Assembly (NCBI GenBank): GCA_028869255.1
Contig: CP110972.1
Coordinates: 2,919,001 to 2,983,000, forward strand
DNA length: 64,000 nucleotides
Source of the DNA: Pseudomonas poae
Lineage (GTDB): Bacteria > Pseudomonadota > Gammaproteobacteria > Pseudomonadales > Pseudomonadaceae
Direction: 5' to 3'
Shown one piece after another: positions 5,709 to 11,326 of the stretch (the stretch's first letter is position 1; each line of letters opens with the position of its first letter). The position numbers and the translations under genes were made by a program. The notes under the pieces were generated by a model that did no database searches, was not told the DNA's origin, and worked only from the letters and a program-made list of their open reading frames with translations.

Positions 5709-7363
5709 CTACACATCATCAATATGCCGATAATCCAGCTGCAACCCAGCCGCCAGCTCCCGAGCCCGCCCCAGCCGGATCGGCCCACGTTCAATATCCA
5801 CCAACATCCCCGGGCATTCCAGCAACGGCAACCCGGCAATCGCCTTGAGCCGCCCATCCGTGATCACCAGCAACCTCTGTTGCTCGGCGGGATAGCGTTT
5901 GCGCCGCGCCGCCAGCCATTGCCCAGCCTCGGCCAGCGCCGCCAGCAACGGCGTGCCGCCGCCAGCGCCTAACTGCTGCAACCAACCCGCCAGGCTTTTC
6001 GCCGCCTTCAAGCCCTGCACCTGCCACGTCGGCGACTGCCCACTGGCCGTCAGCAACGCCATGCGCGCCCGCTGTCGGTAAGCATCATCAAACAGCTGGG
6101 CCAATAACCCTTTGGCATCGGTCAAGGCACGATGGCGCCGGGTGGAGGCTGACGCGTCGACAATCACCAGCCATAACTCATGGGCCGACTGGCTGCGCAG
6201 TTGGTAGCGCAGATCCTCGCGGGTTTGCGGCCGCCCACCGAGCAAGGTGCCCGGCCAATTGACCGCGCCCTGCTTAGCGCTGCGCGCCTTGCCCTGCCTG
6301 CCGCTGTTGAGTCGCCCCGCCTTGGGGCAGGCATCCGCCCCCGCGTCAGGTCGGGGGCGAATGCCTAGGGCTTTTTTGGCCAGGCGGGCACGTCGCGGCG
6401 GGCGCCCGTGGGTAAGGCCGGTGCGGGCATATCACCCCACTGGCCCTGGCCAGGCGAAGTGTCCGAGGGGGTCGGGGCCTGGCCCTGATTCGGCGGGCTG
6501 GCCGGCGGCGCTTGCTCCTGACGGCGATGACGCAAGGCAAATTCCGCAACCGCGTCGATGTCTTCCTCGGCAATCGCGCTGGCACCACGCCAGGCAGCAT
6601 GCGCCCGGGCACCGCGCAGCCACACCAGGTCGGCGCGCAAGCCATCGACACCGGCGGCAAAGCAGCGCTCGGTAATCTGTGCCAAGGCCCGATCATCCAA
6701 TTCGATGTCAGCCAGCCGCGCTCGCGCCTCGGTGCAGCGCTCGCGCAACGCCGCCTGTGGCTCGGCCCACTGCGCACAGAACGCTGCCGGGTCGCTGTCG
6801 AAATCCAGGCGCCGCCGGATAATCTGCCCACGCTCGGCCGGCAGCGTCTGCCCGCTCAGCGCCACATTAAAGCCAAAACGGTCGAGCAACTGCGGGCGCA
6901 ACTCGCCCTCTTCCGGGTTCATGGTGCCGATCAGCACAAAGCGCGCCGAATGCCGACGGGAAATGCCGTCGCGCTCGATCAGGTTGGTGCCGCTGGCGGC
7001 GACGTCGAGCAACAGGTCCACCAAATGGTCCGGCAGCAAATTGACTTCATCGACATACAGCACGCCGCCATCCGCCTTGGCCAGCACCCCCGGCGAGAAC
7101 TGCGCCCGGCCCTCGCCCAGCGCGGCGTCCAGGTCCAGGGTGCCCACCAGGCGCTCTTCGGTGGCGCCCAACGGCAAGGTAACAAACTGACCGCTGGCCA
7201 GCAGGTCCGCCAGGCCGCGTGCCAGGGTCGACTTGGCCATGCCTCGCGGGCCTTCGATCAGCACACCGCCGATCTTCGGGTCGATGGCAGTCAGGCACAG
7301 CGCCAGTTTCAAAGCGTCGGCACCCACCACGGCGGACAGCGGGAAATGTGGGGTATCAGTCAT
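5709..7363 (-). CDS. chlD: chlD: cobalt/magnesium chelatase medium subunit, made by -1 ribosomal frameshifting
   Basis: Full-length product of 551 residues if the ribosome slips -1 at 6371-6377. In order: an AAA+ ATPase domain (residues 1 to ~260, Walker A GPRGMAKST at 38-46, Walker B GVLYVDE near 100-106), a Pro/Gln-rich linker around residues 285-335, then a von Willebrand A domain with MIDAS motif DASAS. This is the ChlD/BchD layout. With CobN as the large subunit it would insert cobalt during aerobic cobalamin synthesis. The VWA frame has no ATG near its upstream end but stays open back to the slippery site, so it is best read as the continuation of the ATPase frame. It lies downstream of cobN, separated by a REP palindrome. 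Confidence 0.85.
6330..6377 (-). promoter_or_regulatory. programmed -1 frameshift signal (slippery heptamer plus hairpin) in chlD
   Basis: On the minus strand, A_AAA_AAG occupies 6377-6371 in the correct phase (CCA AAA AAG CCC TAG). After a 5-nt spacer comes a 14-bp stem: arm 6365-6352, 8-nt loop 6351-6344, arm 6343-6330, fully paired with one G-U. The same heptamer is used by E. coli dnaX. I do not see a strong Shine-Dalgarno-like stimulator upstream. Confidence 0.85.
6365..7363 (-). CDS. ChlI-like small chelatase subunit: frame-0 product of the chlD gene
   Basis: Reading frame 0 from ATG 7363 ends at TAG 6365-6367 and gives 332 residues: the AAA+ ATPase module and Pro-rich linker without the VWA domain. 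This matches the size of a ChlI/BchI small subunit. The stop lies one codon after the slippery A_AAA_AAG. Ribosomes that do not slip therefore make this protein, and those that slip make full ChlD. No separate chlI or cobS gene is seen nearby. An upstream extension of the frame (to 7633) crosses the REP element and is not credible. The residue choice MTDTPHFPLSAVVGADALK follows family starts. Confidence 0.8.
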   Translation of the reverse strand: MTDTPHFPLSAVVGADALKLALCLTAIDPKIGGVLIEGPRGMAKSTLARGLADLLASGQFVTLPLGATEERLVGTLDLDAALGEGRAQFSPGVLAKADGGVLYVDEVNLLPDHLVDLLLDVAASGTNLIERDGISRRHSARFVLIGTMNPEEGELRPQLLDRFGFNVALSGQTLPAERGQIIRRRLDFDSDPAAFCAQWAEPQAALRERCTEARARLADIELDDRALAQITERCFAAGVDGLRADLVWLRGARAHAAWRGASAIAEEDIDAVAEFALRHRRQEQAPPASPPNQGQAPTPSDTSPGQGQWGDMPAPALPTGARRDVPAWPKKP

Positions 7364-7563: not shown

Positions 7564-10500
7564 CTAACTGTCTTCTTCTATATCCAGCAATAGGTTTTCC
7601 AACGCCTCGCGGTACGCTCCGGGCTCTTGCCACAGGCCGCGCTGCTGGGCTTCGAGCATGCGCTCGGTCATGTCGCGCAAGGCCGCGGGGTTGTGCTGCT
7701 GCACAAAATCCCGCGTTTGAGGGTCGAGCAGGTAGGCATCGGCGAGCAAGGCGTATTGATGATCGTCGATCAGCGCCGTGGTGGCGTCGAACGCGAACAG
7801 ATTGTCCACGGTCGCAGCCATCTCGAACGCGCCTTTATAGCCGTGGCGCTTCACGCCTTCGATCCACTTGGGGTTGGCGGCGCGGGAACGGATCACCCGG
7901 TTCAGCTCTTCCTTCAGGGTGCGGATCTTCGGCAGGTCCGGCTGGCTATGATCGCCATGATAGCTGGCGGCCTTGTCGCCGCTCAGGGTCTCCACGGCGG
8001 CGAGCATGCCACCCTGGAATTGGTAGTAGTCATTGGAATCGAGCAAGTCGTGCTCGCGGTTGTCCTGGTTCTGCAACACCGCCTGCACCTGGCTCAGGCG
8101 CTGGGCGAACTGGTCGCGGGCGGCGGTGCCCTCATCGGACCCGCCATAGGCATAACCGCCCCAGTTAAGGTAAACCTCGGCCAGGTCCTCGCGGCTTTGC
8201 CACAAACGCCCGTCAATCGCGCCCTGCACGCCGGCGCCATAAGCACCGGGTTTGGCGCCGAAGATGCGCCAACCGGCTTGCTTCGCTGCGGCCTCCTCAT
8301 CCAGGCCGGACTTGAGCAGCGCTTCACGTTCGCTGCGCACCTTGGCGGCCAGCGGGTTCATGTCGTCCGGCTCGTCCAGGGCTGCCACCGCCTGCACCGC
8401 CGCATCGAACAGGCGGATCAGATTGGCAAAGGCATCGCGGAAGAACCCGGACACGCGCAACGTCACATCCACCCGTGGGCGGTCCAGCAAACTGATCGGC
8501 AGAATCTCAAAGTCATCCACCCGCTGGCTGCCCGTGGCCCATACCGGGCGCACGCCCATCAGCGCCATGGCCTGGGCGATATCGTCGCCACCGGTACGCA
8601 TGGTGGCGGTGCCCCACACCGAGAGGCCAAGCTGGCGCAAGTGGTCGCCGTGGTCCTGCAAGTGTCGCTCAAGAATCAGGCTGGCGGATTGAAAGCCGAT
8701 ACGCCAGGCCGTGGTAGTGGGCAGGTTGCGCACATCCACCGTGAAGAAATTACGCCCGGTGGGCAGCACATCCAGGCGCCCGCGACTCGGCGCACCGCTG
8801 GGACCTGCAGGCACGAAGCGCCCGCTCAAGGCGTCCAGCAAGCCGCGCATTTCCGCTGGGCCACAGGCATCCAGGCGTGGCGCCACGACGATGCGCAGGC
8901 TCTCAATTACCGACTTCACGTCTTCCCAGCCGGGTTCCTCAAGCTGTTCGAGTGGCCCTTCCAGCGCCTGTTCGATCAAGCGTGCCGCGTACAACTCCAG
9001 GCGTTCGCGGGTGTCACCGGCGGTGCGCCATTGCTGGCCGTCGATCTTGCACAACACCTCGGGGCGGCGCCCGGTCCAGGGCTCGGCCAGGGCGCAGTCC
9101 AACGGATCAAAACCCAGCTCGAACGCCTTGGCCAATACCCGCAGCAAGCTCGATTGCGCGCCACGGCCATCGCCACGCGGAATCCGCAGCAAGGCCAGCA
9201 ACGTGTCGATACGCAGGCGTCCCTCGGGCGACTCGCCGAAGATGTGCAGGCCGTCGCGGATCTGCGACTCCTTCAAGTCGCACAAGTAGGTGTCGAGACG
9301 CGGCAACCAGACCGCCGCGTCGACTTCGCTGTCCAGCTCAAGCTCTTGATCGATATGGGTTTCGCGCACCAGCTTGAGGATATCTTTTTGCAGCTCAAGG
9401 GCGCGGCGCGGGTCGAGCAACTGCGCCTCGTAATACTCGTCCGCCAACAGTTCCAGGTTACGCAACGGGCCGTAGGTTTCGGCGCGGGTCAGCGGCGGCA
9501 TCAAGTGGTCGATGATCACCGCCTGGGTGCGGCGCTTGGCCTGGGCGCCCTCGCCGGGGTCATTGACGATAAACGGGTAGATATTCGGCAATGGCCCCAG
9601 CAATGCATCCGGCCAGCAGTGCTGCGACAGCCCCACGCCCTTGCCCGGCAGCCACTCCAGGTTGCCGTGCTTGCCCACATGGATTACGCCATGAGCGCCG
9701 TAGGTGTGGCGCAACCAAAAATAGAACGCGAGGTAAGCATGCGGCGGTACCAGGTCCGGGTCGTGGTACACCGCACTGTGGTCTACCTGGTAACCCCGCG
9801 CCGGCTGGATGCCGACAAACGTCAGCCCCAGGCGCAGGCCGGCAATCATCATGCGGCCGTCGCGAAACATCGGGTCATTATGCGGTGGGCCCCAGCGCTC
9901 AAGCACGGCCTGGCGGTTGGCTTCGGGCAAGCGCTTGAACATGGCCTCGTAGTCGTCCAGGCCCAAGCTTTGGTGGCACGGGCGCAGGTCGAGGCTGTCA
10001 AGGTCGTTGGTGACCCCGCCGAGCAATTCATGAATCAAGGCGGTGCCGCTGTCCGGCAACTCACTCGGCAGCGGATAACCTTCGGCCTGCAGGGCGCGCA
10101 GGATATTCAGCGCCGCCGCCGGCGTGTCCAGGCCCACCCCATTGCCGATGCGGCCGTCGCGGGTCGGGTAGTTGGCGAGGATCAGGGCGATGCATTTATC
10201 CGCATTCGGCACCCGCGCCAGCTCGACCCAACGGCGCGCCAGCTCGGCGACAAAATCCATACGCTCGGGTGCTGCGCGATAGCACACCACGTCCGACTGG
10301 CTGCGCTCACTGCGCCAGGCCAGGTCCTTGAAACTGATAGGGCGGCTGATGATGCGCCCGTCCAGCTCCGGCAAGGCGATGTGCATTGCCAGGTCGCGAG
10401 GGCCGAGGCCCTGTTCGCTGGCCTCCCAGCCGGGCTGGTTGTCCTGGGCGCAAATGGCCTGGATCACCGGGATATTGCGGCGAAACGGGCGCAAATGCGG

Positions 10501-11326
10501 CGCTTCGGGGGCTGGACTGGGCAAAGCCGGTGGTGTTCAGGATCACCGCCGCACCAACCTCGTCCAGCAGGTCCTCGACCACCGTCAGGCAGCCGGGCTC
10601 TTTCAAACTGGCCACCGCCACCGGCAACGGGTTGAGGCCCGCCGCCTGCAAGCGCTGGCAGAACACATCAATAAAACCGGTATTGGCCGCCTGCAAATGC
10701 GAGCGGTAAAACAGCACCGCTGCCACTGGGCGGTCGAGCTGCCAATCGCGCTGCCAGTCATTCAGGCGCGCATTGGCGGTATGCGGGTGATAAATCGCGG
10801 TGCGCGGCAGGGTTTGCGGCTCGTCCCAGGCGTAGTCGCGGCCCAGGTAAGCGCTGGCCAGGCAGCGATAAAAGTCCAGCGCATTGCTTAAGCCGCCCTG
10901 ACGCAGAAAGTGCCAGAGGCGATCGCGCTCTTGTGCGCCGACGGTGCTCAAACCGCTGAGTTCGGGGTCGGGGCGGTCATCCCCCGGCACCAGGATCAGC
11001 TGCACACCGCGCTCGGCCAGCGCCACCAGACGCTCGATCCCATAGCGCCAATAGCCAATGCCGCCGTGCAGCGAAATCAGGATGACCTTGGCGTGGCGCA
11101 GCACTTCATCGACATACAGGTCGACCGACGCATGGTTTTGCACCTGCATCGGGTTGGCCAGGCGCAGGCTCGGGTAATCGTCGGGCAGTTGCTGGGCCGC
11201 TTCGGCCAGCAGTGCCAGGCTGGAATCGCCGCTGCACAGGATCACCAGCTCGGCGGGGGTTTGGCCTAAGTCGGCAATATTATCGTCCGAGACGAAACCA
11301 CCGGGTTGGGTCCTGAGCAGGTGCAT
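7564..11326 (-). pseudogene. cobN: cobN, cobaltochelatase large subunit, split by a 1-base frameshift
   Basis: CobN is the ~1250-residue large subunit of aerobic cobaltochelatase, binding hydrogenobyrinic acid a,c-diamide. From ATG 11326 the frame reads MHLLRTQPGG... to ...NTTGFAQSSP, then leaves phase at a run of five G (10507-10511). The rest continues in the other frame from EAPHLRPFRRNIPVIQAI to the stop at 7564. Removing one base of the run gives an uninterrupted 1253-residue protein. Conserved segments GKHGNLEWLPGKG and AYLAFYFWLRH are intact. The gene starts 3 nt after cobW. A +1 slip at CCC C is conceivable, but no stimulatory structure was seen, so a sequencing error or recent mutation is more likely. 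Confidence 0.85.

What the first reader, a model, noticed from the sequence alone, without database searches (positions are those of the whole stretch)
6330..7363. chlD carries a textbook -1 programmed frameshift signal that can make both small and medium chelatase subunits
Seen: frame 0 ends CCA AAA AAG CCC TAG on the minus strand, containing A_AAA_AAG in phase; 5 nt downstream begins a 14-bp perfect hairpin (6330-6365). The -1 frame stays open through a Pro-rich linker to a VWA domain with the MIDAS motif DASAS. No start codon with a Shine-Dalgarno precedes the VWA part. Known: frameshifting in chlD has been described in cobalamin producers that lack a chlI gene (Antonov 2020, as I recall it), and dnaX uses the same heptamer. 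Inferred: one gene makes ChlI (332 residues) and ChlD (551 residues) to work with CobN. Many annotations will wrongly show two genes or a broken one.
Basis: partly seen in the sequence, partly recalled or inferred. Interest (0 to 1): 0.9.

Follow-up and report, generated by a model that had tools for sequence, protein, structure and literature searches.

The report
One gene, two B12 chelatase subunits
A Pseudomonas gene appears to make two parts of the enzyme that puts cobalt into vitamin B12 by letting some ribosomes slip one base backwards; this was already known, but related marine bacteria seem to do the same trick in reverse.

Summary
On the minus strand A_AAA_AAG (6377-6371) lies in phase, a TAG stop follows three bases later, and a 14-bp hairpin (one U.G pair, so not 'perfect') spans 6365-6330. 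The -1 frame runs to 5709 and encodes a VWA domain; products of 332 and 551 residues are expected. It is neither chance nor assembly error: 53 of 55 same-genus relatives and 78 of 80 named Pseudomonas loci keep the signal, and one hairpin pair covaries. No separate ChlI or CobS was found in the genome; CobN is there. All this is in print for Pseudomonas chlD (2013, 2016 and 2022 papers, read in part; the 2020 paper is not held). The window feature is already known.

Following it outward gave something I did not find in print. Marinomonas has chlD as one uninterrupted frame, CobN, and no second ChlI-like match (44 of 44 genomes with chlD). In 38 of 44 its linker holds G_GGA_AAG, codon-frozen in the main clade, with a Shine-Dalgarno-like element upstream and a nearby -1 stop: the same device in reverse, long by default, short by frameshift. 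In another genus both polarities occur around an A9 run. All is sequence inference. Separately, cobN in this window carries an extra base.

The parts
6365..7363 (-). Zero-frame ORF: short product, ChlI-like AAA+ small subunit, 332 aa
   Evidence: Pfam AAA_5 and AAA_lid_2; TIGR02442 403 bits and TIGR02030 331 bits, both below their whole-protein cut-offs; ChlI 8osf E 3e-82
7226..7252 (-). Walker A-like GPRGMAKST of the AAA+ domain
   Evidence: sequence
6371..6377 (-). Slippery heptamer A_AAA_AAG, in phase
   Evidence: conserved in 53 of 55 same-genus relatives with chlD and 78 of 80 named loci
6365..6367 (-). Zero-frame stop TAG, three bases after the heptamer
6330..6365 (-). Downstream hairpin, 14 bp with one U.G pair, 8-nt loop
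   Evidence: z -5.2; covariation at columns 18-43
5709..6371 (-). -1 frame part of the long product (ChlD, 551 aa in all): linker and VWA domain
5853..6170 (-). VWA_2 domain
6144..6158 (-). MIDAS-type motif DASAS
7564..10524 (-). cobN, C-terminal piece (large cobaltochelatase subunit), directly upstream of chlD
   Evidence: TIGR02257 1455 bits
10307..11326 (-). cobN, N-terminal piece, out of frame with the rest
10507..10511 (-). Run of five C; one base more at this place than in relatives; breaks the cobN frame

Best explanation
The window holds a member of the known frameshifted chlD genes. Ribosomes that keep frame stop at TAG and release a ChlI-like AAA+ subunit of 332 residues. A fraction slips back one base on A_AAA_AAG, helped by the hairpin whose base sits 5 nt downstream, and goes on into the VWA frame to give a ChlD-like subunit of 551 residues. 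With CobN these would form an aerobic cobaltochelatase. Shown here: the signal, its conservation and covariation, and the failure to find other small-subunit genes. Inferred: that slippage happens in this host, its rate, and the function of both products.
For: Heptamer and -1 layout in 53 of 55 same-genus relatives with chlD, 78 of 80 named Pseudomonas loci (some are the same genomes), and 9 of 9 further loci of the family fetched. Pair 18-43 of the hairpin: UA 21, CG 11, UG 5, none unpaired in 37 sequences; in 108 sequences 107 pair against 94.8 expected from independent columns, and C-A never occurs against 12.2 expected. In the -1 frame the 3' change swaps D (GAT) and N (AAT) while the 5' change (ATT, ATC) is silent, so the pairing is kept although the protein changes (sequences). 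Own genome: one match to the N part at E <= 1e-10, no CobS match at E <= 1e-5, CobN present. The AAA+ part is closest to solved ChlI structures. Literature: PMC3711429, one section read (cluster of 23 genes including Pseudomonas; three cassettes gave 63, 40 and 10% shift in E. coli); PMC5009743, one section read (A_AAA_AAR under purifying selection in Pseudomonas, stem-loop of P. protegens); PMC9227772, three of four parts read (P. aeruginosa as stage 8).
Against: No protein or ribosome-profiling evidence. The tested cassettes carried 7, 9 and 11 A; six A plus G was not among those named in the section read. L030 and L063 lack the layout or the heptamer, but cobN of their genomes is also in pieces, so these look like indel-ridden assemblies. 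L131 and L140 have one A fewer; L131 is also broken in its first part. Only one hairpin pair shows changes on both sides; most others do not vary. cobN is out of frame in this assembly.
Confidence: 0.95

Rival explanations
1. Two separate genes: ChlI ends at TAG and the VWA protein starts on its own by coupled re-initiation.
For: Such loci were annotated as two adjacent genes in RefSeq (PMC3711429). Possible starts recur: TTG at codon 44 of the -1 part in 94 of 131 loci, GTG at codon 70 in 108 of 131.
Against: The window's candidate starts have no good SD match; an ATG or GTG with a match of 4 or more is found in 12 of 131 loci, half of them at codon 70, inside the VWA domain. It would not explain the frozen heptamer, fixed spacing and covarying hairpin.
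Confidence: 0.03
2. Pseudogene or assembly error at the A run.
For: This assembly has small frame breaks in cobN and in a comM-like gene, and two assemblies of relatives differ at this very A run.
Against: The two-frame layout is conserved across the genus and family.
Confidence: 0.01
3. Transcriptional slippage on the A run rather than ribosomal frameshifting.
For: Runs of 9 A near the same place in some relatives (L064, L065, L197, L198, L202) could slip in transcription.
Against: The window has only six A followed by G, usually too short (recalled), and transcription slippage gives no reason for the hairpin and fixed 5-nt spacer.
Confidence: 0.02

Closest known systems
Frameshifted chlD (fs-chlD) genes, Antonov and co-workers 2013, 2020, 2022
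   Same: Same gene, same heptamer class A_AAA_AAR, -1 direction, downstream structure, Pseudomonas among the reported genera, no chlI, cobN present.
   Different: Nothing of kind. New here are the genus-wide counts, the covariation, and the sequence of this strain.
E. coli dnaX (gamma and tau)
   Same: A_AAA_AAG with a downstream hairpin and an upstream SD-like element; two subunits from one gene (PMC3711429, passages seen).
   Different: In dnaX the frameshift product is the short one; in Pseudomonas chlD it is the long one. The Marinomonas and L253-L255 chlD genes would have dnaX polarity.
E. coli copA
   Same: -1 frameshift gives a product much shorter than the zero-frame one (PMC5009743, passage seen). 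This resembles the reversed chlD proposed for Marinomonas.
   Different: Unrelated gene.
CobNST and ChlIDH chelatases
   Same: AAA+ small subunit, medium subunit with a VWA domain, CobN-type large subunit.
   Different: Those have separate genes for small and medium subunits.

Membership tests
fs-chlD gene | ChlI-like frame followed by VWA frame in -1 | tested here: met
fs-chlD gene | In-phase A-rich slippery heptamer at the overlap | tested here: met
fs-chlD gene | Downstream RNA structure kept by selection | tested here: met
fs-chlD gene | No separate small-subunit gene in the genome | tested here: met
   one match at E <= 1e-10; no CobS match at E <= 1e-5; Pfam PF01078: besides chlD, a comM-like gene and weaker matches at E 3e-5 or worse
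fs-chlD gene | CobN present | tested here: met
   but in two frames in this assembly
fs-chlD gene | Two products made in cells | not testable with these tools
   no expression data
Reversed-polarity chlD recoding (Marinomonas) | In-frame long ORF, no separate ChlI, CobN present | tested here: met
   44 of 44 genomes with chlD (CobN in pieces in G463, G466, G469); CobS not tested there
Reversed-polarity chlD recoding (Marinomonas) | In-phase slippery heptamer frozen at codon level | tested here: met
   heptamer in 38 of 44 loci; codon freezing tested on the 31 loci of the main clade only, where it is the top of 222 codon triples
Reversed-polarity chlD recoding (Marinomonas) | Downstream hairpin | tested here: inconclusive
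   median z -1.45, 14 of 31 below -1.5
Reversed-polarity chlD recoding (Marinomonas) | Short product in cells | not testable with these tools
   no data

The most novel reading that the evidence does not exclude
The chlD recoding switch exists in both polarities. In Marinomonas (44 genomes with chlD, one uninterrupted frame of 580-628 codons, CobN, no second ChlI-like match) a linker site G_GGA_AAG, present in 38 of 44 loci, with an SD-like element about 6-10 nt upstream and a -1 stop 1 to 11 codons after it, makes a fraction of ribosomes drop off to give a ChlI-like product (376-403 residues in the 29 main-clade loci, counted from the first possible start). The long ChlD is the default. In genus g89 an A9 run at the matching place serves either polarity: long by default in three genomes with a -1 stop one codon later, short by default in two. 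Two-ORF frameshift finders would be expected to miss the reversed form because the gene looks ordinary.
Probability: 0.75. Interest if true: 0.6.

Novelty: already known. Interest (0 to 1): 0.42.

Why it matters
For the window itself: annotators should treat the two frames as one gene with a small and a medium subunit, not as a broken gene. For the wider result: many B12 makers in this order have cobN and one chlD but no visible small-subunit gene, whether or not chlD is split. If Marinomonas makes the small subunit by a hidden frameshift inside an intact ORF, then absence of a two-frame gene no longer means absence of recoding. It also gives a clean natural comparison, because shifting can yield either the long or the short subunit, and so a way to ask what ratio of the two the enzyme needs.

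Tried and rejected
Slippery sites of the A/T type in the in-frame linkers: scattered hits, most not shared between families, so rejected as a general rule. The codon-freezing scan on 30 loci of family f36 (unnamed) found no comparable site, so in-frame chlD without chlI stays unexplained there. Downstream hairpin in Marinomonas: weak, not claimed as established. Internal start for the VWA part: rejected. Overlapping antisense gene as a reason for the frozen Marinomonas codons: the longest stop-free antisense stretch over the site varies from 32 to 158 codons in 29 loci, so no shared antisense frame is apparent. A conserved DNA or RNA motif of another purpose at the Marinomonas site is not excluded.

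Selections to know about: alignment A1 holds 37 of 111 distinct sequences, picked by hand because their hairpins have equal length; one search scored 108 of 111 (L046, L108, L115 left out by the matching rule). The 131 loci are those with the heptamer (L030, L063 and the two five-A loci left out; L067 not included). Of 391 order genomes searched 96 matched; I fetched loci of 60 of these and already held 11 (nine of them used, with L067 as the tenth). Not fetched: 9 Pseudomonas, 9 with a BchD-like match and 7 with matches near E 1e-9. Searches scored at most 8 and 28 candidates per genome.

A correction made on re-checking: the 13 Marinomonas loci that my notes call 'clade 2' are three groups on the tree, not one clade.

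Full report
OBSERVATION. The minus strand of the window reads CCA AAA AAG CCC TAG at the end of a frame that starts with ATG at 7363. A_AAA_AAG occupies 6377-6371, the stop 6367-6365, and a hairpin with 14 pairs, one of them U.G, spans 6365-6330. RNAfold extends it to 16 pairs, -33.2 kcal/mol, z -5.2, with 0 of 200 shuffles as stable. The -1 frame is open to 5709 and carries a VWA domain. The short product is 332 residues, the long one 551. The best NCBIfam model for both halves is TIGR02442, 'putative cobaltochelatase', a 641-position model that takes in both parts; each half alone scores below its whole-protein cut-off. The AAA+ half is closest to solved ChlI proteins and has a Walker A-like GPRGMAKST (sequence).

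CONSERVATION. Of 58 same-genus relatives searched, 55 have the VWA part. Of these 55, 53 have A_AAA_AAG in phase before the first-frame stop with the VWA part in -1. The two exceptions are L030 and L063, from genomes G034 and G052 whose cobN is also in pieces. Among 80 named Pseudomonas loci, 78 have the same layout at the same distance from a TAG stop; L131 and L140 have five A instead of six. The two sets overlap in part. In L037 the stop lies 18 bases further on. Six further loci of other genera of the family and three more Pseudomonas loci also have it.

HAIRPIN. In 37 sequences with hairpins of equal length 96.1% of pair cells are standard, against 33-52% for slid partners; column pair 18-43 is UA in 21, CG in 11 and UG in 5, never unpaired. 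Only this one pair shows changes on both sides; most others do not vary or vary on one side. In 108 of 111 distinct sequences 107 pair there against 94.8 expected, and C-A is absent against 12.2 expected. On the 3' side the change swaps GAT and AAT in the -1 frame, so an amino acid changes while the RNA pair is kept.

GENOME. The window lies in a 6.8 Mb single-contig genome. A search with the AAA+ part finds one place at E <= 1e-10, chlD itself. Pfam PF01078 finds, besides chlD, a comM-like gene and weaker matches at E 3e-5 or worse. No CobS match at E <= 1e-5; CobN is present. So no separate small-subunit gene was found.

LITERATURE. PMC3711429 (abstract, passages and section 24 read) reports a magnesium chelatase cluster of 23 two-frame genes including Pseudomonas, with 63, 40 and 10% shifting for three cassettes in E. 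coli. PMC5009743 (section 18 read, other passages seen) names Pseudomonas, A_AAA_AAR and the P. protegens stem-loop, and states that G_GGA_AAG is highly shift-prone in E. coli. PMC9227772 (parts 1-3 of 4 and found passages read) lists P. aeruginosa as using a frameshifted chlD for both subunits. Antonov 2020 is cited there but is not held; I know it only from its title and recall. The feature in the window is therefore already known.

WHERE IT LED. Across the order, chlD is not always in two frames. Of 70 loci compared, 52 are in frame and 18 shifted. The genomes of the 52, searched with the window's AAA+ part, show one match each, the chlD itself (5, 47). The search does see separate ChlI-type proteins: nine genomes with a more distant, BchD-like match gave their only hit in a separate frame of 213-421 codons. 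So a missing chlI does not by itself predict a two-frame chlD. CobS was tested in 5 of the 52: no match in four, a weak one in G064, 114 bits against a cut-off of 559.

MARINOMONAS. One in-frame family (f26) is Marinomonas by the names and contig lengths of its proteins (M. posidonica contig 3,899,940 = G118; Marinomonas sp. THO17 contig 3,920,899 = G170). Of 48 genomes searched, 44 have chlD. All 44 have a single AAA+ match at E <= 1e-15 and CobN (in two pieces in G463, G466 and G469). Three of the four without chlD were checked and lack CobN. In the 31 loci of the main clade the linker motif E-V-x-P-G-K is CCG GGA AAG in 29, which in phase is G_GGA_AAG; exceptions are L233 and L238. It ranks first of 222 conserved codon triples and is the only one with codon identity of 0.85 or more at all three codons. 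GGA is 97% fixed there while the next best of 35 conserved glycine columns reaches 81%; GGA makes up 10% of glycine codons in these genes. In a first set of 15 loci four-fold sites differ by a median of 65% between pairs. A -1 stop follows after 1 (19 loci), 3 (6) or 11 (4) codons. GAGGT, an SD-like element, lies just upstream in 29 of 31; of the two without it, L238 lost the heptamer too, while L223 keeps it.

The other 13 Marinomonas loci fall in three groups on the tree. Seven have CCG GGA AAG about 50 codons earlier, with a -1 TGA after 7 codons; two have TCG GGA AAG in a different protein context with a -1 TGA after 5 codons; the remaining group of four (L244, L249-L251) has no G_GGA_AAG, though L249 and L250 have G_GGA_AAA with -1 stops after 9 and 20 codons. 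SD-like matches of 5 or more are found in 28 of 29 main-clade and 4 of 9 other loci with the heptamer, against 3 and 5% in the background. In all, 38 of 44 have the heptamer; a tree needs three changes for this label, with long branches that make some joins unsure. Expected short product in the 29: 376-403 residues from the first possible start.

BOTH POLARITIES IN ONE GENUS. In g89 of family f28 three genomes (L253-L255) read through CTA AAA AAA AAG in frame to the VWA part and have a -1 stop one codon later; two (L256, L257) have A9 followed by C at the corresponding place and stop in the zero frame. Five of five have CobN; four of five show one AAA+ match, G479 a second partial one. Two of these assemblies are under 90% complete.

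LIMITS. Everything is sequence inference. Shared descent inflates counts of loci. The Marinomonas hairpin is weak. CobS was not tested in Marinomonas. Codon freezing was tested only in the main clade and shows selection on the DNA or RNA letters, not frameshifting itself. Thirty loci of family f36, also in frame, show no such site, so the small subunit there is unexplained. My searches for prior print were in an open-licence library only.

Noticed in passing
window 10507-10511 (-): cobN is split in two frames by one extra base at a C run; 76 of 76 named loci in which the place could be read (of 80) have the shorter form. Mutation or sequencing error.
   Followed up: partly
L001 (G000:C1 about 6,051,000): A comM/YifB-like gene of the same genome is also broken by a small frame change.
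   Followed up: partly
L214-L243, L195; L154-L157, L245-L248, L252: Marinomonas chlD: G_GGA_AAG with SD-like element and nearby -1 stop inside an intact frame, codon-frozen in the main clade; would be the window's switch with reversed polarity.
   Followed up: yes
L253-L257: One genus with an A9 run at the matching place in chlD, used in either polarity.
   Followed up: partly
L262-L291 (family f36): In-frame chlD genes without such a frozen site; members tested also show no separate ChlI. How the small subunit is made is unclear.
   Followed up: partly
G463:C20 77027-80400 and G466:C38 35503-38879: cobN of two Marinomonas genomes is split at the same model position, about 907-912. The same break twice could be real.
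   Followed up: no
G041:C1 3620392-3621321, G042:C25 133977-134906: Two same-genus genomes without a chlD or CobN match carry a CobS-like gene (E about 1e-146, below the family cut-off).
   Followed up: no
L131, L140: Two related draft genomes have five A instead of six at the chlD shift site; L131 is also broken upstream.
   Followed up: partly
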